DNA of 64,000 nt from Moniliella sp. 'wahieum' (Eukaryota > Basidiomycota > Moniliellomycetes > Moniliellales > Moniliellaceae). This document shows, in pieces, positions 2,428-51,975 of this stretch. The stretch is from the NCBI GenBank assembly GCA_003971905.1, contig RSEE01000009.1, positions 868,001 to 932,000 on the forward strand, in the 5' to 3' direction. The notes beneath the pieces are model-generated. The model saw nothing but the letters and a program-made list of their open reading frames with translations, searched no databases and was not told the origin of the DNA. Numbering within the stretch: position 1 is the stretch's first letter; every line of letters starts with the position of its first letter. The position numbers were made by a program, and so were the translations under genes.

Positions 2428-3576
2428 ACCACGTATACACCTGCTCTGGTGATAACCCCTACCTCACACACTGCTCCCCCACCCTGCTCTCCCTATCCGC
2501 TCATTCCGACTGCCCCATGCGAAAGCTCACTTGGCTTTGCTTGATATACTTCCCCTTCGTTTCCCCGCTGCCGTTCCCGCTCGCTTCAATGGACAAACTG
2601 GTCTTGTGTTCCCTCCCCTATTCGCGTCAGAGTCCGAGTCTGATTTGCGCCCGTCGTGGTCCCCCCCAGGACACGCCCCGGACCGCTGACTGTAGGATGG
2701 GTCGATCACAAGGTGCTATTGGTTGGGGCGGAGGGAGAGGTTAATACCAGGCTAGGCGAGTGCTTGTAATTGGGTAGCCTTCTCTCCACCGTTCCAACAG
2801 TGGCTACGACGTTCATGTAGGGGAAGAGAAGGCACAAAAAAGTAGGTGCAAAAAGACGTATACAAGGGTGCTAGGGCCGGGGGGGGGGCAAGCCAACGAT
2901 TCTATAGCAACCTCGGGACGATCTCACTGCTACGTCGCTATCTCGTGCTCCACCGCTGTACTCGTTCTAATCCGCCGGTTGGGAGAAACGTGGAATCAAA
3001 AGAGAGAGAACAGAGGGGAAGAAGAGAAGCGGAGACCAACCAATTGGCACCATGTACTGCATCTGACCGATAGGTTTCGCATCAACATCGCTCCACTGGG
3101 AGGCCGTCGAACGAATCAAAAGAGCGTATTGGGACAGTACACAAAGGGGGAAAGGGGTCATAGCCCTAATGAGCGTGGGGACGAAACAACAGAAGTTTAA
3201 CCAGCATGTCTCATTGGACCGATTGGAACCAGCGACTGATCCGACGGGCCATGTGGGCTGCTGAATCTAATGAAAGCAACGGAGCGTGAGGGGAAGGAGG
3301 GAGGCCTGTGCGTCTCGTGAAGATAGGGAGAGAGCGAGTGCGAGTGCGTCGGTGCGCTGCCCCACCGTCACTCGATCCTCCCAATCAGGCACGGTGAGCA
3401 GGCACGCCGGGTCCCTGGCCAAGGGGAAAGAACAGACGTCCGTGCTGACCCGTCGTTGGCGAGGACGCCTGCGGTAGAAGAGGAGCGGATGGGAAGGTCG
3501 GGTGGGGTTACATTTTCGGCACCTTCAACGGCGGCAACTGCCAAACGCGAAATCTGCGACTCGGTCGGATCGTTAC
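2428..3576. other. Intergenic region, convergent 3' ends
   Basis: This lies between the plus-strand Ser/Pro-rich gene and the minus-strand RhoGEF, so it should hold both 3' ends. Only short, unconvincing ORFs are present. The minus strand from about 3500 down to 3200 keeps a Ser/Arg/Pro-rich reading that could be a further C-terminal piece of the RhoGEF. I see no RNA gene or mobile element. Confidence 0.4.
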
Positions 3577-6500
3577 TTACATCCTCCTTGCCAAGGTTGG
3601 CAGAGCCGTGCGTTCAACAACCGTAGTTGCATAGGGAAGGGTATGGTCCGCCCCCCCTATTTCAACTGCGCCCCGTATCGAGCCTTGCCTGGAATTCGGA
3701 TCCAGGGCAGGTGGCATGAGAAGCGTGCTTCTAACCCGAGGACCGCACGTAGCCAAAACGTCGGTCAACGACGTTGAAAATGAAGAGGAACGTTGGGGCG
3801 CAAGAGTGAGGGCAGATCCCGTACATGAAGGACCCGGTGGGCTCCAACCATCGCTATCGCACGGCTCCATCACCCTTTCGGGCAGCCTCATGACTCCCGT
3901 TGCGCGTCTAGGTCTCAAAGAGGACCGCCGAGCTGGCTTGTTTGCCACGAGTGCAGGGTCTAAACCATCACGAGACTCGTCGTCTCTTCTTTTGGCGCGC
4001 TGAAATGATAGTGAAGTCCCCTCACATTCCCGCGCGCCCAAAAACGATGACACAACAGGAAATGGCACCTCTGTTCGATGCTGAGAGCGAGGGGGTGAGA
4101 TGGCTGCGATGGAAACCCGTCGTACCGTGTGAGGAAGGCAAGGGGTACGATGGGCGGGGATGGAATAGGTACCACAGTTTCGGCGTTCAGGTCCTTCGTG
4201 GCTTTCTGTATATTGGGCTCTTGCTTGGTCCTCACAGCCCCTGTTGAGTCATGGTCGCCGTCGCGAAGGCCCTGTTGGCCAGCACTGCTTTCTTTGGGGG
4301 AGGGAGCAACAATGTCAGAATTGGATCGAAGCATACTTGGTTTTGCTACGCCTTGAACAGGGACGGTTGCGTTTGCAGGAGCAAAGGGAAGAAGGGAAGG
4401 CGTCGACGCAGCTGTGGTAAGGGGCACAGTTACTGCTTGCCTTTGCCTTGGTTATAAAGCGTGATAAGGGTCTGTTGAAGGGCAGCGAGACGAGGGGTGT
4501 AAGCGAGGTTTTCTTCTTACTACTACTCATCTGGTCGTCGGGGAACCGCGGTGTCATCGTGACCGAGCCAGCGTGCATGTCTGCGCGTGCGGCAGTCGCG
4601 TCAGTGATGATCCTAGCCTGGCGCAGCGCTTCGACAGCACGCTTCCCGTTGGGAAACGTGGTTCCGTGTGCACGCTCGATCATGTTGGCCAGCATGAGTG
4701 AGTACTGCACCACACGCTGATGCGGTCGCGCCAAGTAGTCGTCCAACCGCAACTTTTTGCGTCGGCTTAGCGCCATCATGCTGTCTGCCTGTGATGGAGA
4801 GGTGGCCAAAGTTGGAGAGCAGGTTGGATCAAAGGAGTCCCTTGTTGCTGACGATGTCGGGCAAGGCGAGGGATCTTGGCTGGTAGAGGTGAATGAGGGC
4901 ACAGGGGAAGAAAGGGGGGGCACCGGGCATCTTTCTTCAGTTGTGGATTCACAGCTAAACTCCAACGATGAGAGCGGTCGGTTGGCGAGGGGCAATCGGT
5001 CCTTGATTATCAATTGCGGCAAGCGCAGGAAGGAGCGCGGCCGTCCCACTGTCCGCTTTCGGTTGGGCAAGAAGGCGAGAATGTCAGAAGTGACCGAGCC
5101 GCGCTTAGAACTGCCAAATATGGGTTCCTCGGAGGCGGCGGTAGCATTGAATAGAGCGCCCACAGTATTGGGGGGGGGATTGGACCATCGCAAAGGCATC
5201 GTGCTCTTTCGGTGTTTGGCCCGGCCGATACAAGCAGCAAAATCATGCTGGTTTCCCTGACGACCGGACTCATCCGCTTCTTCTGTATCCCCACCCTCCA
5301 CCCCCGAAGAAGATGAAGCAAACGAAGATAAGTTGATACCAGTGAAAGTTGATGCAGCAACCACTGCTCGAGCGCACTGCCGCTCGTACCCCCACCACAA
5401 GTTTGGATCCCGTTCCCTTTCCACCTTGATAATGGACACAAGTGCCGGTTTGTACTGGCAAAATACGTCGTACACCGTCAAGTGGGGGCACTGAAGAGAA
5501 GTGGCAATCAACGTCAGTATTATTTCTTGCGGGTGCTGTTTTGTTGGCGTAATGCAGGTAGTAGAGATAAAAGAAACATACCAAAATGTCCGCAAAAAGA
5601 GAGGCAATGTCCACAGCAGCGGCTTCCAACTGAGCCATTACGGATGAACCGTGGGCGATTGAACCCCTTTTTTGTGTCGTAGCAATGTCTTCTCGTTGGA
5701 AGGAGGACGAAAATACTGGCGTAGAGGCCATTGAGGATGACCGGGACGATAAGGGGCCGTCATAATGTTCTTCACATTGGACGCCAAACGAAAATGAGGG
5801 TGAGCTCGGGGGGCATGTGAACGGGGGATGAAGCCGACCAGGGACGACGGGACGTCCAACCGCTCAAGAACTGTATCCAGTCGATGGAAATGCCACAGGT
5901 CATGCAGGTGCCTCGCAGCCGTCTTGTGGGTAATGAGCAGGTCTTCCAGTGCCCATTGAACCATATCCAACACGCGATGGTTCTCATTGGTTAGCCTGGA
6001 ATCGATTCTCTCGGTCATAGTTTCAGCGTTACTGGCAAGACTGCTGTCGACAGGCCAATTGGCATGCACCTTGCTGCTGATGGAGGTAGAGGGAAGGAAC
6101 TCGCCCGAGTTGCAGTTCTTGTCCACCGACTCGCCCTTCGAAGAGTCCAACACCTTGTCCATCTCATTTGTTGGAGCTCCAAGGCCCCCCTCGCTCCATT
6201 TGAATGGGTTATTCGGGACAGAGAGTCCAAATCTTAGAAAGGATGAAGGAGATGGAACATATTCTTCTGGGCTGGGAGTGGGAACCGAAAGCGACGTAAT
6301 GCCGAGGTTGGGATATGAAGTTTGAGTGGTGTTGGAAGTGAACAAAGTCTGATTAGCCAGACCCGGAAGGTAGATATGACCCAAAGCAATCAAGTCCCCC
6401 ACATATGTATGCTCCGTTTCGACCAACTCCCGAATCTGATACCATAGGTTAAGTGCCGCTGCCCGCGATTCATCATCTAGATGAAGTGGTGTAAACAATG

Positions 6501-30483: not shown

Positions 30484-30938
30484 GCCGGCACGGGAAACAG
30501 AAGAAGGTGGTGGTGGGGGGGGGGGGGGGCGGGCAGACGCTGGCAAAAAAAAATCACCCCATTGCGGCGCTGGCTGGGCGCGAGACAGGCAGAGCGCAGA
30601 GCGCAAACGACGATGAAGTTGAATGTTCAACCTGCGAGAAGAAACGAGTGGACAGCCGATGAGACTGCTGTGTGATGTGCGACGTGTGATACGCGATGCG
30701 TGGTGTTGCAGGTGATGGGTGCATTGATGGATGAAATTGAAATCAACTGGTCTGTGCGGCTGTGCTACGGCGTGCTATTGCCTGCGACGGCCTGCGACGA
30801 ATCACGGCTGGCGGCTGACGTGGCGCCCCGGCCACAAACCAGATGGACATCGCCGGCCGCCGCTTTTTCCTCACCACCTCCAGGCACTTCCTGGCCCCGC
30901 TCCCCCTGCTCCCCGCCGCGCCTGAGGTCTGCTTCGAG
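30484..30938. promoter_or_regulatory. Shared divergent promoter, DHS and glucosidase II beta
   Basis: The 455 bp between two head-to-head starts must hold both promoters. A run of 15 G (30515-30529; C on the DHS sense strand) lies 32 nt upstream of the DHS ATG. Near 30675-30710 are reiterated GTGTGATG/GCGATGCG words. There is no clear TATA box. Confidence 0.55.
30515..30529. repeat. 15-base G homopolymer
   Basis: It lies just upstream of the deoxyhypusine synthase ATG and reads as C15 on that gene's sense strand. It is the longest homopolymer I noticed in the window. Confidence 0.95.
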
Positions 30939-32722
30939 ATGCGCGCCAACACCGCCCTTCTTGCTGCCACGCTTGCAACTCTGGCCACGGCGCGCGACGT
31001 GACCGCCTCGGGCGCGGTGCCGCGCGGCGTGGCCCCTTCCGATGCCGCTCGCTACGAACCTCTGGACGAGACAGTTGCTGGCGCGCCAGGCTGGCGCTCT
31101 CTTTCTTCGGGCGAACTTATCCCCTTTGCGGCTGTCAATGACGACTACTGCGACTGTGCCGATGGGTCGGACGAGCCGGGCACAGCTGCCTGTGCTGGTA
31201 GCCACTTCTACTGTGCCAACGAGGGCCACACCCCCGCCTACATCCCTTCCTCCCGCGTTGGGGATGGTCTTTGCGAGCCAACTTGCTGCGACGGATCGGA
31301 CGAGGCTTTGAACCCGCTGGATGATGGTAGCACGAGATGCCCGAACACGTGTGCCGAGGTGGGCCGCAAAGCTCGTCTGGCCCAAGCTCAACGCGATGCC
31401 CTCCGCCGCTCGGGCGCCAAGATTCGAGCCGGGTACATTGCCAAGGCGACCAAGGCACTGGCCAACGAGAAGGCCAAAGTGAGCCGATTGACGCTTGAGA
31501 TTGGCCTGGCTCAAGAGAAGGTAGCCGCGCTGAAAGAGGCGTATGAGGCGGCGTCGGCCCGTCTAAAGGCTGACACGGCGGCCAAGAAGGAACTGCCGGC
31601 GTACAAGGCGCTTGTGGCGGCTCAGTACCAGCTGGCGGCTGACGAGGCAGTCAGGAAGGAGCTCCTGGACGAGTTGGAATACCTCACTGAGCTGCTCGAT
31701 GGTTTGGCGGGCGGGTACAACCCCAACTACCAAGATATGGCAGTCAAGGGGGCCGTGATGGAGTACCGCTCCTGGAAGGCTGCGCAAGACCCTTCTGACG
31801 AGGAGACCGAGGGTAACGCTGAACACGCCGACACGGGAGGCAGCGTAAACATTGCTCAGGAGCCGCCTGTGCGGATGGAGCAGCTGCGGAACCTGGTTGC
31901 TCACCCTCCCCTGGTGGGCAAGGAAAGCGGCGCCTCGGTGCCAAATGATGAGCCCATCCCATCCTCCAACGAGACGTTTGAGCTGCTTAGTCAGAACCCA
32001 TTGGACATCGTCGACACACCTGGATCGTCCCGTCACTCCAAGAGTGGGCTTCTGTTCCGCATCCATGAGTACCTTCCTGACAGTGTGGTGCCTTACTTTG
32101 AGGCCACCGTCGACACCCTTCTCGATCTCCTGGTCAAGGCCAATGTGGTCAGCCGGACGAGAGGAAGGTTCGGGAGAGCGCGACGAAGCTCGGAAGGAGC
32201 GCATTGCCCTGGAAGAGGCTGAAGCACACCTTCGCAAACTCGAAGGCGAACTCAATGATGCCCACATGGCTTCGCAGCTTGAGCCCGCGGTGTGGGGTCC
32301 CGAGGGGGAGTGGAAGGCCCTGGATGGGACCTGCGTCGAGTGGAAATCAGACTCGGGAGAGTATGTGTACGAGATTTGCTTTGGCCCGGGCGCGCAAGCC
32401 CTGCAAAAGCCGCAGCGGGGTGGAGCTGAAGTCTCGCTGGGCAGGTTTGACAAGTTCAACGTCCACAACCCCACTGATTTGAGCCCCGAAGAGGACCCAG
32501 CGCACTTCTTTGCCTCGGCGCTCTACAACAATGGACAGCGCTGCTGGAACGGGCCGGACCGTTCGGCCGTAGTGATGCTCGTGCGGGACGGAGAACGCGC
32601 TGACCAACGTGTTTGAGGCGGAGAAGTGCATCTACAACATGGCCGTCACGACGCCAGCGGTGTGCTACCCTCCGGAGGGTCAGAAGAAGACGCCGGTGGC
32701 GGGCGGACACCCCGACCTGTAA
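30939..32722 (+). CDS. GTB1: Glucosidase II beta subunit (PRKCSH-like)
   Basis: This is the ER-lumen regulatory subunit of glucosidase II, which trims glucose from N-glycans and feeds calnexin quality control. The signal peptide MRANTALLAATLATLATARD fits a start at 30939; an upstream in-frame Met at 30843 is less likely. Two Cys-rich LDLa-like repeats follow: DDYCDCADGSDEPGTAAC and VGDGLCEPTCCDGSDE. A coiled coil rich in Ala/Lys/Glu spans about 31360-31700. The C-terminal MRH lectin domain includes EWKALDGTCVEWKSDSGEYV, YEICFGPGAQALQKP and CGTENALTNVFEAEKCIYNM. Frameshifts occur near 32155 and 32578. The protein ends HPDL, in the place of the usual HDEL-type retrieval signal. Confidence 0.93.
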
Positions 32723-33123: not shown

Positions 33124-34915
33124 TTAGGCATCCGTCGTGGCTGCAATCCGGGCCCCCCACGCGCCGCGAGGCCTGAAAGCAGGCTTCTTGGCGGGGGCAG
33201 CCGCAGCGGCAGGCTCCTCAGCATTCTCCTCCTTTGTCTTGGGGGGCGCAATGGGCAGGGGCATGTTGCGCAAGTGTTGGGTCGAGTCCGCCATGCGCGT
33301 GCCGTTGCGCAAGAACCAGTCTCCGTACCGCCGCCCGGCGCGGTGCTCCGCCACATGGACCGTGTCGCCGTCGAGAACAAAGTCGAGGTCGGATGTGTTG
33401 ATCACCGTGCCCTCCAGCAGGTTGCCTGCTTGCCACTTGAATTGCCGTGTCGCCGCCTTGGCCACCATCATGCGCTCAATCACCTCTTCTTCATCGGTGT
33501 CGCAGAAGTCGGCGAGTTTGTCGATACCAAGCGACTTGTAAAGCTTGACAAAGCTCCGCACCGTTCCGTTCGAGAGTTGAGGGATAATGTCCGCCATGAA
33601 AAGCTGAGTTGATGCTGCACCGGGTCAGAAAGCTGGGCGTCATCCCACACCGCATCGCCTCCGGGTCATCGTACGCTGGGCCCGAGGTGGCAATGAATTT
33701 GGGCGCCGCGTAAAGGAACAGCTCCTCAAATGCCGAGGACTGGGCCTTGTGCATCCTGGCCAGCTGCTCGCCGTATTTGTCCTTGAGTGCTGACTGCAGG
33801 CCCTCGTCCAGACGAGTAGGGCAAAGAACGATGCTGATGGCCAACAACGCGTACATCCGGTCCGCCGTCTTGGTCAGCTGATCGTGTTGGTACGAACGGG
33901 TGAAGGACTTGAGACGCTGCATGAACGTGAGGATGCTAGTGAAGGAACGAATCGCGTCAGGGTAGCGACCGAGCATCAGGTAGGCAAAGCCGACATAGTA
34001 GTAGGTAGACACATGGCACGCCGTCACACGAGTCATCAGCGCATTCTTCTTGCCCAACTCAATGTGGTCAAGGTTTGAGAGCAAGGGTGTAGTCACCCAG
34101 GACATGCACGCGCAGCAAACCAATCAAGCTGAAGAAGCCCAAGGTCTTGTAGAGCTGCGTGCTGCCATACTCACCCGCCACCTCGTCCGGGTCCTCTCCA
34201 GCGCGGTGGCGGCGAGCTGCTGGACAATGTTGGCCTTCTGGATCAACGAGTATAGGACATTGAGCACCGAGTAGCTGCTCCACACCCCACCTTCACGGAG
34301 AAGCTCAAGATCCTCCTCGTTTTTACTGGAGAGCTTGTTGCGCCATTGGCTGAAGCTCTGGTACTGGTAGATAAACTCGTCGATAATGTCCCAGAGCCAC
34401 TGCGAGGGCAAGTTGATGGGCACGGGGCCGTGCTCATTGTTGAGAACGTAGTTGAAGAAGTCGCAGTAGTTGTCGTACGAGCTAAAACGGTCTTCCCCGG
34501 TCGGTTGCAGACGCGAGTAGACGTGGCGGTACCAAAGTTCCTTGTAGAGGATGAGGAATACCTGGTCATTCTCCACCAGCGGGGCGATCACCTCGGCATC
34601 GGGCCACTCGGATTTGGCATAGTGCTTGGCGGTCAAGCTGTTCCAGCCCCCTCGTACGCAGAGCTGATCTCGGGGAGAGAGTTGTTCTTGACAGCGGTGT
34701 AGAAGCCAATGAGGTACTTCTTGACAGGCGACGGCACCTGCTGCAGGGCAGCAGTCTGCTGGGCAGCCGCAGCCTTCTGGGCTTCGGCGACCAGGGCGGT
34801 GCGCGGCGTCGTCGGCAAAAGCATCGCCGGCAGCGGCATAGTCGACGCCGAGGTCGACCTCTCCTTCCAGGAGCTCCTCGTCTTCGACGTCTTGGGTGTA
34901 GTACGGGGCGGACAT
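33124..34915 (-). CDS. EIF3L: Translation initiation factor eIF3 subunit l
   Basis: This is a PCI-domain subunit of eIF3, which organises 43S pre-initiation complexes. The start [20 protein letters not shown] is at 34915. Diagnostic segments in order are [40 protein letters not shown] across a frame change, [70 protein letters not shown] and, near the end, [19 protein letters not shown] of the PCI winged helix. The C-terminal tail is Ala/Pro/Lys-rich and ends at 33124. Frame changes lie near 34825, 34640, 34165, 34080 and 33620. Predicted length is about 570 residues, normal for the family. It is head-to-head with the MAP kinase. Confidence 0.94.
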
Positions 34916-35558
34916 GGTGGTGGGGGTCGAGTCGATGTCCGAGCGAGCAGGCGAAGAGCGAGGGCGGCAGGGGAGGAGCAGCGAAACAGCCGCCGTGCGC
35001 CCGGATTTTTTTCCCCTCTGCTGCCCGCCGGCCACACTGCCCGCATGCGGCGGCGGCGCGTGGGCATGCTTCGGGGGCGGAATGGCCGACGACGCCCGGC
35101 GGAACAGGCGGCGTGGCCGAGCAGCGGGCGCATCGGGCAGGCTGCCCAAAGTGAAAGTTGTAGTCAGCGTGTGCACGGCGCGTGGTGTGTGATGTGCACG
35201 GTGTGATGTTGGGTGGCAGAAGGCGGGCGGCTGGTGGTGACCGGTGACGGTGACCGGTGAGGGTGCCAGTGAAGCTAGTGAAGCTAGTGACGGGTGGCAG
35301 GCACGGGAGGCGGGGCACGGGGGCGCTGTGCTCCACCTGAGGCGGCGCGGCGGCTCCCCGAGCAGGTGGGAAGGCGTGGCGGGCGCTGGCTGCCGTGCGG
35401 CGCCGTGGCACACGCGAGCGACACAGACCCTTCGCCCGCCTGGGCCACAGTCTGTCCCCAGCGGCGCGCAAGCTGGATTCGGTCGATTCAGGATTGCCGT
35501 TGCGATTGATACGCCGCCCCCGCTCCTCTGCCCTACCACCCGCTCCTCCTCCGCTGCC
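34916..35558. promoter_or_regulatory. Shared divergent promoter, eIF3l and MAPK, with GTGACCGGTGAC repeats
   Basis: This is 643 bp between head-to-head starts. A block at 35236-35290 repeats GTGACCGGTGA twice and GTGAAGCTAGTGA-like words twice, about 270-320 bp upstream of the MAPK ATG. The rest is very GC-rich. Confidence 0.6.
35236..35290. repeat. GTGACCGGTGA and GAAGCTAGT direct repeats
   Basis: There are two copies of GTGACCGGTGA, then two copies of AGTGAAGCT and a third partial. The AgeI-type palindrome ACCGGT is the centre of the first unit. It lies inside the divergent eIF3l-MAPK promoter. Confidence 0.85.
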
Positions 35559-36934
<1,376 letters not shown>

Positions 36935-37449: not shown

Positions 37450-39082
37450 TCATGCAGGACTACAACTCAAACGGGACTTGGCCGTCCCATACAGCTCTTG
37501 GTATAGCGCCCGCAGCTCATCCGACGCCTGCTTTGCCTTGGGTCCTTGCCCCATCTCATCGTTTATGGCAAGGAACTTGACCCATGAGCGATGCGATAGC
37601 GAATGTTGAGGCGAACCGACGCATTATCCTTGGCGAAGATGTCCACCGATGCAGCAATATGGTCTGTGTCGTCATTGACTGAGGCGCCACGGCAAAGGTC
37701 AAGGGCGACTTTTGATGGCCCAGAGGGCGAGTTCCATGCATCAAGCTCCCCTCGAGCGCTGTGTAGGCATGCACCAGTAGTGGTGTGATCACGTCCTCGT
37801 AATGCCGAAAGCGGTGCGAGAGGGTGGTGTTGATCTCGGCCGCAAACCTGCGTGTTGTGCCGAGCAAGGCGGTACGGGAATATACAAGGGTGCGTGGCGT
37901 ACAAAGCGAGGTGGAAAGGCAAGTTGCTGGCAGTACCATAGGCACGTTGAATCGCATCCAGCGTGTTGTAGGTACTAAACCGCCAAAGTGTTGGGCAGGA
38001 ACAAGTTCATGGTAGTTGGGTGGCTTGCGAATCTCTTTCGATTCCAGGTATTGCAACACGCCCCGCCCCGATCCACGTCCACGGTAGCCGTCCTGGATCC
38101 AGACGTCGTGGGGAAACATCGTCGCCCCCTCCCAAGGTGAAAAAGTCACTGGGGTGCAAGGGTGAAGGGAAGGTGTAGTCATCGTTGCAGTGGATAATCC
38201 ACTCGCTGTCCGGCAAATGGCTGCCGCGAGGGGGAGGGGGAAGCCGATGCAGGAAGGCTTCAATGACGTTGGAGCTAAAGGTAGGCTGAGCTGCCGGGGG
38301 AGCAAAACGTCTTGGTCCACCCACTCGATCCGCCCAAGAAGATCGGGGTGGCCGGTTTGCGCGGCAGGCGACGCATGGGGTACTGCTTGTCCCTTGGCGT
38401 TGAAGGGAGGGTGGGCGAGGCGGACAAAAGAAGGTGGCGAGGGGGACACGATCACAATTCGTCCCGTGTGCCAAGGCAAATGCATGGCTAACGTGCGCAA
38501 ACTGAACAGCAGATCATCATTGTCCCGATCCCGGTCGCCGCCAACGGCGACGCGCCCGCCATACTGTTCCCGCAATTGACGGTTGTCAGGGTCGCTGCCG
38601 TTGATCCATGTATAGACAATGGTCGCGTTGCGCGCCCACTCCCATTCGGGCTCGAGCGCTGCGGATGGCGCGACTGACGCCAGCCCCGCCTGGGGGTCCG
38701 GCCCGCCCATCTGCTGGTGTGATGAGGCGAACGAAGGGAGGGCAGCCTTTGCGGTGGACACGGAAGGGAAAAGGTAAGAGGAAAGGGAAGTGCGAGAGCG
38801 GAGAGGATCAGATTGGAGGTGGAGTGCCGACCGGATCGGTGCGGTGGTTGCAGCCATTACAAGGACCACCAGCACGGCGGCGACAATCACGGCAGTACAA
38901 GCGCGCGAGGTGCGGCGGGACGGATACGCAGCGCCAGGTCCATTGGATCGTCTGTGGCGAGGGGGGAAGGGGCGGATACCAAAAGGGGAGCGTGGCCGAG
39001 CACCCATTCCCATAGTCGGTGAGGCGCTGAGCAGTCCTGGTTTCACGCGTCTTCCGGAAGCGGTGGCCGTGGTGGTGAGCAA
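37450..39082 (-). CDS. Stealth-family sugar-phosphate transferase, type II membrane
   Basis: This is a Golgi-type hexose- or xylose-phosphate transferase. The best-known fungal relative is the Cryptococcus xylosylphosphotransferase Xpt1. A basic N terminus is followed by one membrane segment, ACTAVIVAAVLVVLVMAATT (about 38900-38840). Stealth CR1 is ATIVYTWINGSDPDNRQLRE (38625-38565). CR2 begins DRDNDDLLFSLRTLAMHLPW and GRIVIVSP, then in a shifted frame FSSNVIEAFLHRLPPPPRG, EWIIHCNDDYTF and HPSDFFTLGG, matching the family's NDDxx and SDFFT motifs. CR3-CR4 follow as RFRHYEDVITPLLVHAY and, in another frame, WVKFLAINDEMGQGPKAKQA. Frame changes lie near 38300, 38130, 37985 and 37570; the stop at 37450 assumes the last one. 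The substrate is inferred from the family only. Confidence 0.86.
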
Positions 39083-40563
39083 GAAGATGTGCGTTTGTTC
39101 TGAACCACCCTAGGGCTGTGTGTGGGTAGGCTTGGCCACTGCAGGGGTTGAATGTGCCTTGATCCGGCGCGACTGCCACGGTGAAGCTTGAAGACGAGAA
39201 GGCCCGAAAAGCTGATGCACTGAGGGTGTGCCAGCCGGCACACATCGTTTCATCACCCCCATCCCACCGCAGTCTCGCCTGGGTCCGCTCGAGTCTGATG
39301 CCGTCTTGCTCCGCTGCTTACGCGGGCCACAGGCACCTGCGAAATCATATCACACAGCCGGCAGCCTGCCGAACAAGGCCGGTGTTGGCAATGGTATCAA
39401 CGTCAACACAGCGTCAAGGTTCAAAGCGTTTAACGTGAACACATCGAACATGATTCTACTCCGCCGAGCAGGGCGTAATGCGCGTAATGGGAGGTGGAGC
39501 CTGGTGGAGCACACAGGAGTGAGAAGCTGCATCCCACCACTGCCACCAACATGTCCCAATCTCATTTTCTTTTACCTCGGGTTCAACGTATTCAAAACGT
39601 TCAGATGTCGTCAGAAGAGTATATAGCCACAGAGTGTGGAAACTAGAAGCCGATTGCTGGCCTCGATGGTCACCGTGTTCGTTGGGCCTGACTATGTCAT
39701 GGAAGTTGATCACAGACTTAATAATCACAACTTGCTCGAGGTTGTCCACATGTATATGTAAGCTAGTTAAACGTTAACCGTTAACAAGGCGCTCTAAGAT
39801 CTAAGCGCTATAATTATGGTACGAAACAGGAAGAGAGTCGGCGTATTAGCGCAGAGCGTAGCGGTACTACCACACAATACCTGACTAACTGACGGCAAAA
39901 CGTGATGCATGATTGCCCCAACAGAGTGGGAACGAGCGAGAGGCTTCTGACCACGAACGCAAAGGTGAACGAAATCTCCAGAGGAAGAGTATGTCGCCTG
40001 GTGTCGCTCGTGACGCGTGACGTCGAAACGCGTGAAGCTTGAAGAGAAGAAAACCAGAAGGAGAGGGAGAAGCGACAACAGAGAAGAGCACACAAATTGT
40101 GACCGTGTGTGATGGATCGAAACGGCGCACGATCGCGAGGACAACGCAATACTAGCGTAGTGCCGACGCATCATGGATGATCTAGATGATCGATGAGGCG
40201 ACCTGAGGAAGAGTCTGAGTATACTATAGTGCACAATCACTAATCATCGATATATCGATCATCTCCAAGTTAATTAAGTCACAGCAGTACGAGCTCCACA
40301 GTGTCAGAGCGAACCACGGTTCACTTGTGCGGATGCAGACGCAGATATCAGAAGGTGAAAACAGACGGATGATCAATGAAGAGAAGAAAAGGTGGAACCC
40401 ATTGGACAGGGAACGGATTCCGGGCGAAAGCCCGGACCCGTGCCGTCCACAAAAGCCCGGTACGAGTGTGAGAGATAGTGATACTTCGAAATACTACACA
40501 GCGTTACCTGATGTTACAGTCATGCAAGTCATGATACACAGCCTTTTACTGACAGTACTGACC

Positions 40564-40577
40564 GGTGACCGGTCACC
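40564..40577. repeat. Perfect 14-bp palindrome GGTGACCGGTCACC
   Basis: This is a perfect inverted repeat with no spacer. Its half-site GGTGACC also occurs in the eIF3l-MAPK promoter repeats, and related words lie at 14186-14210 and 21739-21752. Confidence 0.95.
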
Positions 40578-43500
40578 TCTCTCTCATATCAAAACCATGT
40601 CAGTCCCATTAATAGACTAATGGGGAAAGGTTTCACTTCTAATAGTACTAGAGACTAATAGCACAGTAGGACTGTCACATGTCAGACCTCAGGACCTCAG
40701 GGGCAACTAATCCTCCATTTGCTGTTGCGGATAATACTATCATCCGCGAAAACAGGTGTGGATGTGCCGGAGCACCGCCGACGCTGAGTCACGTTTTGGT
40801 CGATTGACAAAGAGTGACTATAGAAGCTTTGATGACCTCCCCCGCAACAGGCAACCGTCGTCGATATAGTCACTCTGCAGTCATATATGGAAAAAAATCT
40901 TCTACTACCATACGAGGAGACCACCGGGCCTACGGCCCGGTCAGCTGGGGCCCGTAGCCAGCGTTCCCCCTTCGCCACCTTAGCCACCGTTCCCCCCTTC
41001 GCCACCGTAGTTATAATATCACCGATACGCGCTGGCTGCGGGTGGCTGGGAACGTGGCACCGGTCGGCACGTGCCTATGACGTAAAAGATGCACGGCGGA
41101 TACTTTTGCGTATGACATAGAGTGTCCCAGCCTTAAGCTCTGTCAATGGAATGCACACAACAGAGATGGCAGGAGGCAAAGAAATCCACCAACAACCCTA
41201 CTGCCCCCCGACCTGAACCCTACTGCTCCCCACCTGCACGTGACGGGGGGGGGCTGCGCCAACCATCGGCATATGACAGAGTCGCGTCGACGCGTCCCTC
41301 CACTCCCTTAAAATGCCCCTGCCCGTGCTCACCGCCGGTGCCCCATTGCCGCACCAACGACCACACGGCACACGGTGCCCCTTCAATCCACGCCCACGGT
41401 TGTGCCCCTACTGCCGTCGAGGGCTCGATCCATGTAACGTGAATTACGACGACCCTGTCGCAGGCGGGCCCTGCCAGGTGGGTCACTCAGGTTGGGGGGT
41501 ACAATCCCTTAGGTGAAGGACGACTCACGGTAGTTTCGGGCTTGGGCTACTTGGTGGATCCGAGCGAGGGGGAGAAGCCTTGGACGTGAAGCCGAGGCGG
41601 CTGCGCGCGTGGCAAGGCGTATACGCCGGCTGAAGGGTAGTAACGTGTCTGAAGCCTCCGGGGCTGAGACGGGTAGATGCAGTGGAGCGGACAGACACTG
41701 CCAGGGCTGAGGCAGGGCAGTGGCTGTGAAAGGAACCCACGCGACATGCTATGGTACGGGGAACCGACGCGGCTGAAGGAAAAGGCTCGCGCGATTGGGC
41801 ACATGGAAAAGCGTGGAGGACGAGTTGGATGATGAAAGATGATGCAGCTAAGTGGAGACGAGATGTTGCCTGTATTACTGAATCAGTTGGCTGGAAACAT
41901 GCAGGAGTTGGACAAGAAAGGTGGGAAACGACGAGAATGGAAGGTGGGATAAAGGATCCCCACTAATCGATGATGCTGACTGTTGGTTGGCCCCTTTTTG
42001 GTACCCCCTTCTGTCTAAGCCCCATCGCACTGGCATAGATGTTGACAGAGCGAATTAGACGAAGTTATAGAGTGCGACTTGGGAGCGTTCGCGATCCTAT
42101 GGATCAGCTGCAAAGCAGCCTTCAGACAAGGCGTGAAGGCAAAGTGGTGAGCCACAAGTCTTCAAGCAACAGCTGAATTGAAGGGAAGGAACAGGAGAGA
42201 GAGAAGGGAGATGAAGCGAGCAGGGCGTACGCGCCCTGCGAGCGGAATCTTCCGCCCGGCTAAGTGAGCGTCACCGATCCACGAGGGCCGTGCAGGGGAA
42301 ACCAGCACTGCCCTCCAATAGAAGCAAGCGAAGGCTGCGAAGGCACTAAGAGTGTCATCCGATAGCACTTCCTCGTATTATATGTTGGGGGGCAGGAAAG
42401 GTGTTAGACTTCCACGTGGGCAGTCCCATCAATAACTGCATCAATGCCTATACAACCGATCGGATGGTCTATACGGCGAAGTGTTGTTCATCATGCCGAA
42501 AGGATTCGTCAAACAGTTCACAAAAACAAAAGGGAGAAGACACGCTGATTTGACTTGTTGGGCCGGGGCTCTCATCATATGCAGTATTCTCGAGTCCCCG
42601 TGTTCCGTGTGCCCGTACTATGCCCATATGCCCAAAAAGAGGAAGCCAAGTTCAAGTTGCCCTGAGGAGGAACAATGTGCGAAAAGGGAAACATTATATG
42701 AACCGACCACATAGGAGGATGCTGACTGCAGGGGGAGAAGAGTGTAAAGAACTTTGATGTGACCCTGTGAAAAGGCTCTCGCGCATCGTGTGGTATTATA
42801 TATACTACACGAGAGATGTCAAGTATGTCCCACGCCTTGCCGAGACCACCGAGTTCTGATGAGGACCTTGTTGCAGTGTTCTCGTCGATGAAGAGCTCAA
42901 ACGGACGATGATTGGTCTTACAGTCACTTTTGCTTAAGATTTTGAAGAAGGGGTTGCGTATGGCAAAAGAGGGCAGCATGAGAAAAAGACAAGCAGACAC
43001 TATCGGCTTGTTATCCCAAAAAAAGAAGAGCCTTACGATGACCAGTGGAAGTTGCTGCACAGTCGTCACCACCACAAGCAAGTGCCGCCACCTCAGGTGA
43101 TAATGAGGGCCACTAAAGTTGGCGTGTGTACTCGAGGGAAAGGGATATGCTCCATGGATTTTGTTGTGAGAGATGTAACGGTCACTGCGCAGTCCTCAAC
43201 AGCAGAGACGCAGACAACTCGCCCACACGCGACAGGTGAACTTCAGACGGTGTAGTCCTGAGGAGTGGCAACTCGCTAAGAGTCAGGTCCTTTTGGCCGT
43301 GAGGTGCGGTAACTGGGGCCATAACCGAGACGGGACAATGTAAGGATCGGTGTTCATTATACTACTAGTATGGACACATCCTGCTGTAAGCGAGAAACTC
43401 AACGATATCGCTGTAAGCGACGTGGGCTCAAAAGCCTAAGAAAATGGGAGGAGATGAGATGGCGCTATTTCAAGAGAAGAGAGCCCGACACAAGGCAGCC

Positions 43501-48489: not shown

Positions 48490-48564
48490 GTGAGCAGACT
48501 GCGCTCAGGAGTGCCTTGGAGCTCCCCTGTGTACTAACACCCTCATGCTCTTCATCCTTTCTAG
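48490..48564 (+). other. Probable 5' UTR intron of the GH16-AT3 gene
   Basis: The donor GTGAGC is at 48490 and the acceptor CTAG ends at 48564, directly before the ATG at 48565. A branch-like ACTAAC lies at about 48534. The exon upstream is Ser/Pro-rich if translated but has no in-frame link I can support, so an untranslated leader is more likely. Confidence 0.5.
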
Positions 48565-51500
48565 ATGCAGGTCTGGTCTGCCTTGTTCTTGGCGGGCGCC
48601 GCGGTGGCTACCCTGCCGGGTGTCCGCGCGCAATGCGCTTGTGGTTACCAAGACCCAACCACTCTTGCCTCTTCACCGATGCCGTCATCACGTACTTCAA
48701 CGAGACTGGAGCCGCCGACCAAGTCGTCTTTGTACCCGAAAAGTCGGCTGACCGGTACGGGCGGGACAGCGCCGGATACGCTGGCACGGGTCAGCAGCCC
48801 TGGATCAACAGTCAGCGCACGAATGAATGGGAAGACGATTTCTCAGCTACCTGGCGCAGCGCCGTCTCGTACAACAACACCTTTCTCATCGCCAACGAGA
48901 GTATGGGCATGATGGTTGCAGCTGCCGACATCAAAAACCGAATCGTTTATGGAAGTCAGTTCCAGACCCGTCGCCGTGACATTCTGTACGGATCCTTCCG
49001 GACTATGGTCTTGCCCCCTACCGACGCCAATGCTGGAACCGAGTTCGACATTGAGCTCGCGTACAACGAATCGTCCGTGGTTCAAACATCCTTTTTCAGT
49101 AACGACAATGCGACTGATGCCACGGTCGCCATGGGCTTCTCCTCCAAATCCAACGGTCTCAACCCCGTGTTTGTCAACCAGTCCAATATCAGTCCAGGCC
49201 AGGGAAAACGATGTTTGGCACGAATACCGATGGACTGGCTCCCCACTGTACTGAGCTGGAGCAACGACGGCACCAATGCGAGTCTCACTTCGATGGCCAA
49301 GCCTAAGAAGAAGGGAACCCAACTTCCTGTTCTTCCGGCTCCATTCAGTTTCAAGCACTGGTCCAACGGTTCTCCTACCGGATCCCACGGACCTCCCAAG
49401 CACACTCCCCTCTTGCTCAAATCCGCTACGCTCGTCTCTTCTTCAACTCGTCGCTCGCCACGCGTTCCTCGCAGTTTGATGAACAGTGCGCCGCTGCTGG
49501 TGGTGCCCAGGTGTGCTCGACGGAAGACTGGACCTTGCGCGGCTCGACCGAGCTGGACCTAGCCATGACTGTGAACCAACCCTTACCCCACAAACATTAC
49601 CACGCTCGTCCGTACGCTTGGATTGGGTTTACAGTCTCAATCGGAATCTTTACTGCCCTCTTTGTCCATGCGTTTGTTCGCCGTGTGATCACCTCCCGCA
49701 TCAAGCGCCGTGCCTTCTATGACGACTACAACCACAAACAAGAAGAGCTCCAGGCGGAACAGGCTTCCCAAACGGTTACGTCGTCGCCTGCCTCACCTAA
49801 CCCTCCCTCCAACAGTTTCCGCAAGAGTGACTACACCGACGTGGAACTGGCGACCGAGATGGCAGATCAGAAGGTATTTGACGAGGCGATGGCGACGTGG
49901 GACAACCCTGAGTTCTTGGCTGATCACCTGGATCAAGTCGATGACGACGATTCGGACATTGACGAAAAAGAAGAGGCGCTCGTTGAAGATCCGTTCTACC
50001 AGCACAACACTGATGCCAGTTCGCAGATCAGTTTGTCCCAAAGCCTCAAGTCAGGCTACCGCCTGCCCTCGGTTCATTATGTCCCTGGCACACCCCACAC
50101 CACTCGTCCTGCGTCCCTCTACAGCAACCCACCGATTGGCCGCTCGCATTCGCAGTGGAATTTCGACACCGACCGGACGAGGTACCGACAGGCGCGCTGA
50201 CCCCCAATTTGGGTCGTCACACCCCTATGTTGTCTTTCAATTCGCCTGCCATGACAACTAGCGACTCCTTGGGCATACTTCAACGTGCGGATCAACCTTC
50301 TACGTCGGGTGACCAAGGTTCCTCGGTGTACGAGCCATCAATTGTTTCAGGAGAGGATGGGTTGGGTGCACCGCCCGCAATGCCGCCTATGGTCACGTTG
50401 CACCCTCATCACAAATGCTTCTGGAGGATGGATCGGCGATGCCGGTACACTGGGTGAACCTATTGCTGAATGGAAGCCAGCGGCGCCGACGGACCAAAGT
50501 GAGGCGCAAGGCACGCTGGCCAAGCCGGCAGGGGCTGGGGCCGATAAAAAGGCGGACAAGGAAGATGAGGCGAAGGAGACGTTTTGGGAGAGCATCAAGT
50601 ACAAGATCTTTGTCCACAGGGCGAGGGGACGGGCAACGCGTCGGGGGCCGCCCGGGTCGAGAGTACTGGACGGTCTTCGGGGTTTGCTTGCTTGCTCGTC
50701 TCGTTGCACCACTGGACACTGATTTTCGAATATTCGTTCACAACGGCAGGCGTCACGTCGCACTATGGCTTTGACAAATGGATCTACCGCATCTTGGGCC
50801 CCATTATCTGCAATGGTGGTCTGAATGTCGGCATCTTTTTCGTTCTGCCGCCGTGTGATCGCGAACCGGTACTTGGTGCGTGGGAACCTGCAAGACCTGG
50901 CCCAGCAAATCTTTACGCGTGTCCCTCGTCTGGCTACGACCATCACAGCTGCCTTGCTCATCAACTACTTCCTCATTGAATCGGTACGTCTTCTGGATCG
51001 CTCTCTCTTTCCTCCACTAGTGGTGTGATGCTGACAGTTCCTCGTTTTCGCTTTTCAGGGTGCATTTTACTGGGTCTCTCGTCTACCTTCGCGGAGTACA
51101 GCGTCTGGTCATACTACCATGACTACTCCTCGGTGGGCGAGTTTATCGATTCATACCTCACGCTCTGGTTTATGCAACCACCTACCATCCCCCCTCACGC
51201 GGCACTATGCCACCGGCATTCTCTGGACTGTTCCCGTCATCGTTCAGTCGTCCTGGACAGTTTACATTTGCGCCCTGATCGCCGGGAGATCAAGAAACCA
51301 TGGAAGCGGTATGGATTCTACCTGGCTTGCTTGACGTTAGAATGGTGGTCGAACCGGTACGATTACTTCTTCATTGGTGGCCTGATGATTGCCGACTTGG
51401 ACAACCGTCTCAAATACCGCCAACTGTCGGCCAAGGAATAAGATTTTCAGAAAGTTCACGTCACCCTTGAACCCTTTGCTTGGATCCTCTTCTTCCTGGG

Positions 51501-51975
51501 TGCGGTCATTACCTGGCTGACCCAGAATGGCACGTTTGACGCCCCGGGGTGAGTTTTGGGATCAAGGCCAACTTCCAGCGGGCAGCCCGAACAAGTGGAC
51601 CGACACCCCTCTGCAGTACTACCTCCCCGCCATTCAGACTGCATCTGGGTTTTTCTCCTTCTTCCTCCTTTGCGACTTGAGCAAACTTTGTCCGCACCGT
51701 CTTTACGCTGCGCGTCTGGACCATCTTTGGTCGCAACGCGTTTTCGCTCTATTGCTTCACGGGACAGTCTTCTGGAGTGGGGTGCGGTCTCGACGTTGAA
51801 GATGCTCAGAGCCGCTTCCAGTACTGGGCTGCCATGATCATCAACTTCTTCTTGTGCTACGCGGTTCTTTTCGTCGCGTGTGAGCTCTTACACGTACCTT
51901 GACCGCTGGGGCATCATGGTCGCTCGCGCATGCTGGCGTGCTGCTTCCGGTGGTCTGGGACGTCGCATTCGTTAA
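48565..51975 (+). CDS. GH16 glucanase-like domain fused to acyltransferase-3 membrane domain
   Basis: This is a predicted wall-facing membrane protein of about 1,100 residues. The signal peptide MQVWSALFLAGAAVATLPG starts at 48565. The GH16 fold includes NHSCLFTDAVITYFNE, RRDILYGSFRTMVLPP, the catalytic ExDxE motif GTEFDIEL (49041-49055 holds EFDIE) and a WHEYRWDWLP reading near 49230. YAWIGFTVSIGIFTALFVHA (about 49612-49671) is a membrane segment. A 300-residue Asp/Ser/Pro linker follows. The acyltransferase-3 hallmark VLDGLRGL and LLVSLHHWTLIFEY lies at 50660-50735, followed by several hydrophobic helices, WSNRYDYFFIGGLMIADLDN near 51345-51405, and a tail ending GLGRRIR at 51975. A 75-nt intron (50984-51058) is clean. 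At least eight frame changes are needed, but the domains stay in linear order on one strand. Confidence 0.82.

What the first reader, a model, noticed from the sequence alone, without database searches (positions are those of the whole stretch)
48565..51975. GH16 glucanase-like enzyme fused to an acyltransferase-3 membrane enzyme
On one strand and in linear order the sequence shows a signal peptide, a GH16 fold with the catalytic EFDIE motif, a membrane segment, a long acidic linker, and a multi-helix domain opening with LDGLRGL and LHH, the hallmark of acyltransferase family 3. Such transferases acylate polysaccharides in bacteria. Joining one to a glucan-cutting or transglycosylating domain suggests a single protein that remodels and O-acylates a wall or capsule glycan. 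I know of no characterised fungal protein of this design, but I cannot search for one.
Basis: partly seen in the sequence, partly recalled or inferred. Interest (0 to 1): 0.78.

Follow-up and report, generated by a model that had tools for sequence, protein, structure and literature searches.

The report
Fungal glucan-binding membrane acyltransferase fusion family
This fungal gene, one of a family of about eight, joins a secreted sugar-binding or sugar-cutting domain to a membrane enzyme of a kind that moves acyl groups across membranes, so it may add acyl groups to the fungus's own wall or secreted sugars.

Summary
The architecture is real. The window copy is broken by many frame shifts, but 11 homologous loci (8 groups, three of them allelic pairs) all carry GH16-like then AT3-like sequence, same strand and order. 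In copy C1 one unmended frame runs from the end of GH16 through membrane helix and linker into AT3; codon-phase constraint keeps one phase in 10 of 10 windows there. The AT3 motifs RXXR (11 of 11 loci) and R-X10-H (9 of 11 in one frame) are kept.

One point of the interpretation changes: the glucanase motif ExDxE is complete in only 2 of 8 groups (this gene's included); the others read NLDVE, DLDIE or EFDIA, yet the domain stays under purifying selection. Best reading: a membrane O-acyltransferase with an extracytosolic GH16-derived glycan-holding module, possibly still catalytic in two groups. Acceptor, donor and topology are inferred.

Seven paper searches aimed at such a fusion found none in six; the seventh listed six papers that I did not open. 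Fungal proteomes could not be searched.

The parts
48490..48564 (+). putative 5' UTR intron (GTGAGC...TTTCTAG) ending directly at the ATG
   Evidence: sequence; same in the C18 copy; not tested by transcripts
48565..48630 (+). signal peptide MQVWSALFLAGAAVATLPGVRA, followed by QCACGYQDP
   Evidence: a Met, a hydrophobic stretch and C-x-C-G in one raw frame in 8 of 11 loci (C5 and C33 none, C4 only an unconvincing match)
48631..49440 (+). GH16-like domain; frame changes at about 48664 and twice near 49210
   Evidence: PF00722 14.4 bits on the window piece; 27.7-29.9 bits on the C18 copy
49041..49055 (+). EFDIE, aligned with the catalytic ExDxE columns of GH16
   Evidence: C18 copy: PF00722 position 72 for the first Glu in two fragments, the same position as in the EIDIE of a bacterial lichenase
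49622..49678 (+). single membrane helix IGFTVSIGIFTALFVHAFV followed by basic residues
   Evidence: hydropathy 2.03 in the C18 copy; position
49679..50640 (+). acidic, presumably cytosolic linker
   Evidence: open across changing frames and constrained as coding; 1178-1310 nt from HWSNG to LDGLRG in the 10 of 11 loci where both were found
50641..51972 (+). AT3 (acyltransferase family 3) domain with several membrane helices, split by an intron
   Evidence: tblastn and Pfam through paralogues
50666..50712 (+). LDGLRG...LHH, AT3 R-X10-H motif (a frame shift lies inside it in this copy)
   Evidence: in one frame in 9 of 11 loci (not in C9, the window copy, nor in C4)
50918..50929 (+). RVPR, AT3 RXXR motif
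   Evidence: 11 of 11 loci
50984..51058 (+). 75-nt intron GTACGT...TTTTCAG inside AT3
   Evidence: GTACGT or GTATGT at the same place in 11 of 11 loci by eye; a strict pattern caught 4 of 11
51973..51975 (+). stop codon after GGLGRRIR

Best explanation
One fungal gene encodes a membrane protein with an extracytosolic N-terminal GH16-derived domain, one membrane helix, a roughly 320-residue acidic cytosolic linker and a multi-helix AT3 transferase. The AT3 part takes an acyl group (most likely acetyl) from cytosolic acyl-CoA and passes it across the membrane to a glycan. The GH16 part holds that glycan, probably a beta-glucan-like polymer of the fungus's own wall or secreted matrix, near the transfer site; in two of about eight genes (this one and C5/C27) it may also cut or re-join the chain. 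Shown here: one gene with the two domains in order, AT3 motifs kept, purifying selection on GH16, linker and AT3 pieces, loss of a GH16 catalytic residue in most paralogues. Inferred: topology, donor, acceptor, cellular site and function.
For: A GH16 piece and a piece holding helix, linker and first half of AT3 both match the same 11 loci, AT3 half included in each; the second half of AT3 also matches in 11 of 11. C1 frame 3434-5263 is open for 610 aa; from about 3764 it is the coding frame and runs through helix, linker and half of AT3. C1 versus C4 mismatches favour one codon position in 20 of 21 windows (p<0.05 by shuffling), with the same phase leading in all 10 windows starting 3754 to 5104 (one of them, 4054, not significant). 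The C18 copy is open from within GH16 through the helix into the linker for 482 aa. Of 52 non-allelic pairs, 9 align over 3.2-3.5 kb as one alignment reaching from near the ATG to the stop. R-X10-H in one frame in 9 of 11 loci, RXXR in 11 of 11; both are reported essential in AT3 proteins (passages of PMC9833829). NLDVE, DLDIE or EFDIA stands for ExDxE in 6 of 8 groups, yet C1/C4 GH16 dN/dS is about 0.12. The DWLP and HWSNG region aligns with Crf1 (PDB 6ibu, E 0.0003).
Against: No transcript, structure (predictor switched off) or substrate data. AT3 of the C18 copy is just under the Pfam cut-off; the second-half AT3 pieces scanned score 19.8 bits (C1) or nothing (C18). C1's GH16 region gets no Pfam hit at E up to 1, and the genome-wide PF00722 search lists no clade B locus, nor C9 or C12, so their GH16 label rests on homology to C18, C27 and C5. 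NCBIfam gives nothing over a cut-off. C9 versus C5 shows a preferred codon phase in only 15 of 22 windows. The glycan-holding role is an inference. The assembly is rich in indels, and the C12 Ala rests on one codon of one copy.
Confidence: 0.6

Rival explanations
1. One reading: a bifunctional enzyme that cuts or transglycosylates a glucan and O-acylates it.
For: EFDIE in the window gene, its C18 copy and C5/C27; in the C18 copy it maps onto the GH16 catalytic columns; similarity to Crf1 in the second half of the domain.
Against: Complete ExDxE in only 2 of 8 groups; the spacing from YGSF to EFDIE (18 residues) is about 12 shorter than the 30 profile positions between these points in canonical GH16, so a strand near the cleft may be missing.
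Confidence: 0.25
2. The AT3 part acylates a lipid, a sterol or a small metabolite, and the GH16 part only anchors the protein to the wall.
For: AT3 proteins act on many acceptors (recalled); there is no acceptor evidence here.
Against: Linkage with a glycan-type domain in all 11 loci.
Confidence: 0.12
3. Two neighbouring genes, or a broken relic, read as one by an indel-rich assembly.
For: The window copy changes frame many times.
Against: Unmended frame across the junction in C1, coding-phase constraint across it, homology between groups as one block in 9 pairs; frame changes lie at different places in different copies.
Confidence: 0.03

Closest known systems
Bacterial AT3-SGNH O-acetyltransferases (OafB, OatA)
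   Same: AT3 membrane core with R-X10-H and RXXR, fused to a soluble extracytosolic domain that deals with the glycan (PMC9833829, passages only)
   Different: The soluble domain there is a C-terminal SGNH domain; here it is an N-terminal GH16-like domain beyond one extra helix and a long acidic linker
Eukaryotic NRF-AT3 proteins (Drop dead, nose fluoxetine resistance proteins)
   Same: Eukaryotic AT3 with an N-terminal fused domain (PMC12423673, passages only)
   Different: NRF domain instead of GH16; the named examples are animal proteins
Crf1 (PDB 6ibu), a fungal Crh-type GH16 enzyme (fungal origin and Crh type recalled)
   Same: GH16, with similar second-half sequence
   Different: No AT3 and a complete catalytic motif (both recalled)
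CASD1 and GWT1/PIG-W (TmAT superfamily)
   Same: Related membrane fold that transfers acyl groups to sugars across a membrane (PMC12423673, abstract and passages)
   Different: No GH16 domain; different sequence families (recalled)

Membership tests
AT3, PF01757 | profile score over curated cut-off (31 bits) | tested here: met
   C1 32.1-33.3, C27 31.9; C18 copy of this gene 28.5-29.0, just under; window pieces none
AT3, PF01757 | R-X10-H in helix 1 | tested here: met
   in one frame in 9 of 11 loci; interrupted by a frame shift in the window copy; not found in one frame in C4
AT3, PF01757 | RXXR on helix 3 | tested here: met
   TRVPRL in 11 of 11 loci
AT3, PF01757 | ten membrane helices | tested here: inconclusive
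   hydropathy on raw pieces of four copies finds several strong helices, but not the first one and none in one C27 piece; no full count possible without mending
GH16, PF00722 | profile score over curated cut-off (22 bits) | tested here: met
   C18 copy 27.7-29.9, C27 27.5-28.0, C5 23.9; window pieces 13.8 and 14.4; C1 none; clade B, C9 and C12 not listed genome-wide
GH16, PF00722 | ExDxE catalytic motif | tested here: inconclusive
   met in C9, C18, C5, C27 (4 of 11 loci, 2 of 8 groups); not met in C12, C1, C4, C33, C44, C74; C32 garbled by indels
AT3-SGNH (OafB type) | C-terminal SGNH domain | tested here: not met
   AT3 homology runs to the stop after GGLGRRIR; no SGNH hit in the Pfam scans of the pieces
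Glycan O-acyltransferase | transfer activity | not testable with these tools
   needs biochemistry

The most novel reading that the evidence does not exclude
A fungal family in which a former wall-glucanase domain, mostly stripped of its catalytic residues, has become the glycan-holding arm of a transmembrane acyltransferase, giving the fungus a dedicated, multi-copy machine that O-acylates beta-glucan at its surface.
Probability: 0.35. Interest if true: 0.72.

Novelty: new variant of a known kind. Interest (0 to 1): 0.52.

Why it matters
AT3 enzymes acylate glycans in many organisms, and a fused domain can decide which glycan is reached. A fungal GH16-AT3 fusion kept in about eight genes, with the AT3 motifs intact and the glucanase motif incomplete in most, points to an enzyme class for O-acylating fungal glycans that could alter wall properties, recognition and digestion. 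It gives a direct candidate for testing whether fungal beta-glucans are acylated in vivo.

Tried and rejected
Relatives in bacteria, archaea or viruses: two genome-contig scans and three viral-contig scans gave 58, 120, 69, 47 and 5 pattern matches and no confirmed relative. These collections are not fungal, so this says nothing about rarity among fungi.

Solved AT3 relatives by sequence with the C1 AT3 half: none up to E 10. A profile of three GH16 pieces reached only Crf1 (E 0.024) and a chance nanobody.

EFDIE as a coincidence in a neighbouring strand: a weak alignment with plant EG16 places it in the strand before the catalytic one. Two profile fragments put its first Glu on the catalytic column, so I kept the catalytic reading; the short spacing leaves doubt.

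Two-gene and relic readings: rejected for the reasons given under rivals. In one search (pieces of 40 aa or more, matches of 60 or more, printed for 11 of 55 locus pairs) rows with dN/dS near or above 1 come largely from copies read in a wrong frame and were not used; several rows had saturated dS; dS is high throughout, so ratios are rough.

Full report
What is there. The window lies on contig C9 of an unnamed 69.5 Mb, 223-contig genome. Introns and neighbouring genes (PAF67, PRKCSH-like, a protein kinase, SAM synthetase) fit a eukaryote, and a fungus is the natural reading; the species was not identified. From 48565 to 51975 the + strand carries, in order, a signal peptide, a GH16-like domain with EFDIE, one membrane helix, an acidic linker and a multi-helix region with LDGLRG and LHH. 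The copy is broken by many frame shifts.

Why it is one gene. A search with the GH16 piece (26 candidates scored, 23 matches) and one with a C1 piece of helix, linker and first AT3 half (33 scored, 42 matches) hit the same 11 loci and no other: C9, C18, C27, C5, C1, C4, C12, C74, C33, C44, C32; the tool warns that only best candidates are scored. The AT3 half is covered in each, and the second AT3 half matches in 11 of 11. Three pairs share long flanks (C9/C18, C5/C27, C32/C44, 91.5-94.9% identity); with C1, C4, C12, C33 and C74 that makes 8 groups. Of the other 52 pairs, 9 align over the gene as one alignment; the rest align in part, often without the linker, and three only over AT3. Outside the gene no similarity between groups was seen except one 166-nt stretch in C1/C33.

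Frames and constraint. In C1 a stop-free frame spans the whole interval from HWSNG to LDGLRG; it is the coding frame from about 3764 on, with one frame change just before. In the C18 copy one frame spans most of GH16, the helix and the first part of the linker. Codon-phase tests: C1 versus C4, 20 of 21 windows have a preferred phase at p<0.05, and the same phase leads in the 10 windows from 3754 to 5104; C9 versus C5, 15 of 22 windows do, the 7 failures being the first window, two in the linker, two at and after the intron and two near the 3' end, where the window copy changes frame often. In-frame pieces give dN/dS of 0.07-0.14 for GH16 within clades (0.31 for C1/C18, between clades), 0.08-0.24 for linker pieces and 0.03-0.12 for the best-aligned AT3 pieces; other AT3 rows, across frame changes or the intron, are 0.16-0.32 or more (in-frame rows chosen by me). 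An intron beginning GTACGT or GTATGT sits at the same place in AT3 in 11 of 11 loci.

What the AT3 part is. PF01757 exceeds its cut-off at C1 and C27 and is just under it at C18; second-half pieces score 19.8 bits or nothing. Both motifs described as essential (passages of PMC9833829) are present: R-X10-H in one frame in 9 of 11 loci, RXXR in 11 of 11. In this genome all 3 PF01757 matches (12 candidates scored) are at loci of this family.

What the GH16 part is. The C18, C27 and C5 copies exceed the PF00722 cut-off; the genome also has stronger, separate GH16 genes on C8, C23 and C2. The first Glu of EFDIE falls on profile position 72, where that of the lichenase EIDIE falls. Across groups the motif is EFDIE (C9/C18, C5/C27), EFDIA (C12), NLDVE (C1, C4, C33, C44; C32 garbled) and DLDIE (C74). 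In GH16 the first Glu is the nucleophile and the last the acid/base (recalled), so 6 of 8 groups should not hydrolyse by the usual route, though the domain is conserved. 'Clade A' here means C9/C18, C5/C27 and C12, 'clade B' the rest; the split rests on motif and sequence likeness, no tree was built.

How it most likely works. Signal peptide and single helix put the GH16 domain outside the cytosol and the linker inside; a passage of PMC9833829 speaks of AT3 termini in the cytoplasm. AT3 would load acyl-CoA from the cytosol and deliver the acyl group outside, to a glycan held by the GH16 domain. This parallels the SGNH domain of OafB in role but not in fold or position. Topology, donor and acceptor are inferred.

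Novelty. Seven paper searches aimed at such a fusion: six returned no paper; one search listed six papers on fungal genomics, transcriptomics or biology, of which I saw the listing and abstract starts only. Three others served context (listings only, apart from passages of PMC9833829 and PMC12423673). The library is open-access only. PMC9833829 says that other AT3 fusions exist in Eukarya according to Pfam architectures (passage), so this combination may already be listed there. I rate it a new variant of a known kind.

Noticed in passing
window 41421-42376: Dispersed repeat: a search with window 40001-43000 gave 95 matching pieces (40 of 1120 candidates scored), the block at these coordinates mostly 82-91% identical between copies.
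   Followed up: no
window 37559-39109 (-): Stealth-type gene (CR3 26 bits, over its cut-off; CR1 25.6, just under), about 9.5 kb from the fusion gene; such proteins are glycan phosphotransferases (recalled).
   Followed up: partly
window 30819-32219 (+): Glucosidase II beta subunit-like (PRKCSH-like) gene, 148.9 bits.
   Followed up: no
window 34127-36170: PAF67 gene on - and a protein-kinase gene on + whose open frames overlap, though the matched domains do not.
   Followed up: no
whole genome G000: Three family locus pairs share long flanks at 91.5-94.9% identity, as in an assembly that holds two haplotypes.
   Followed up: partly
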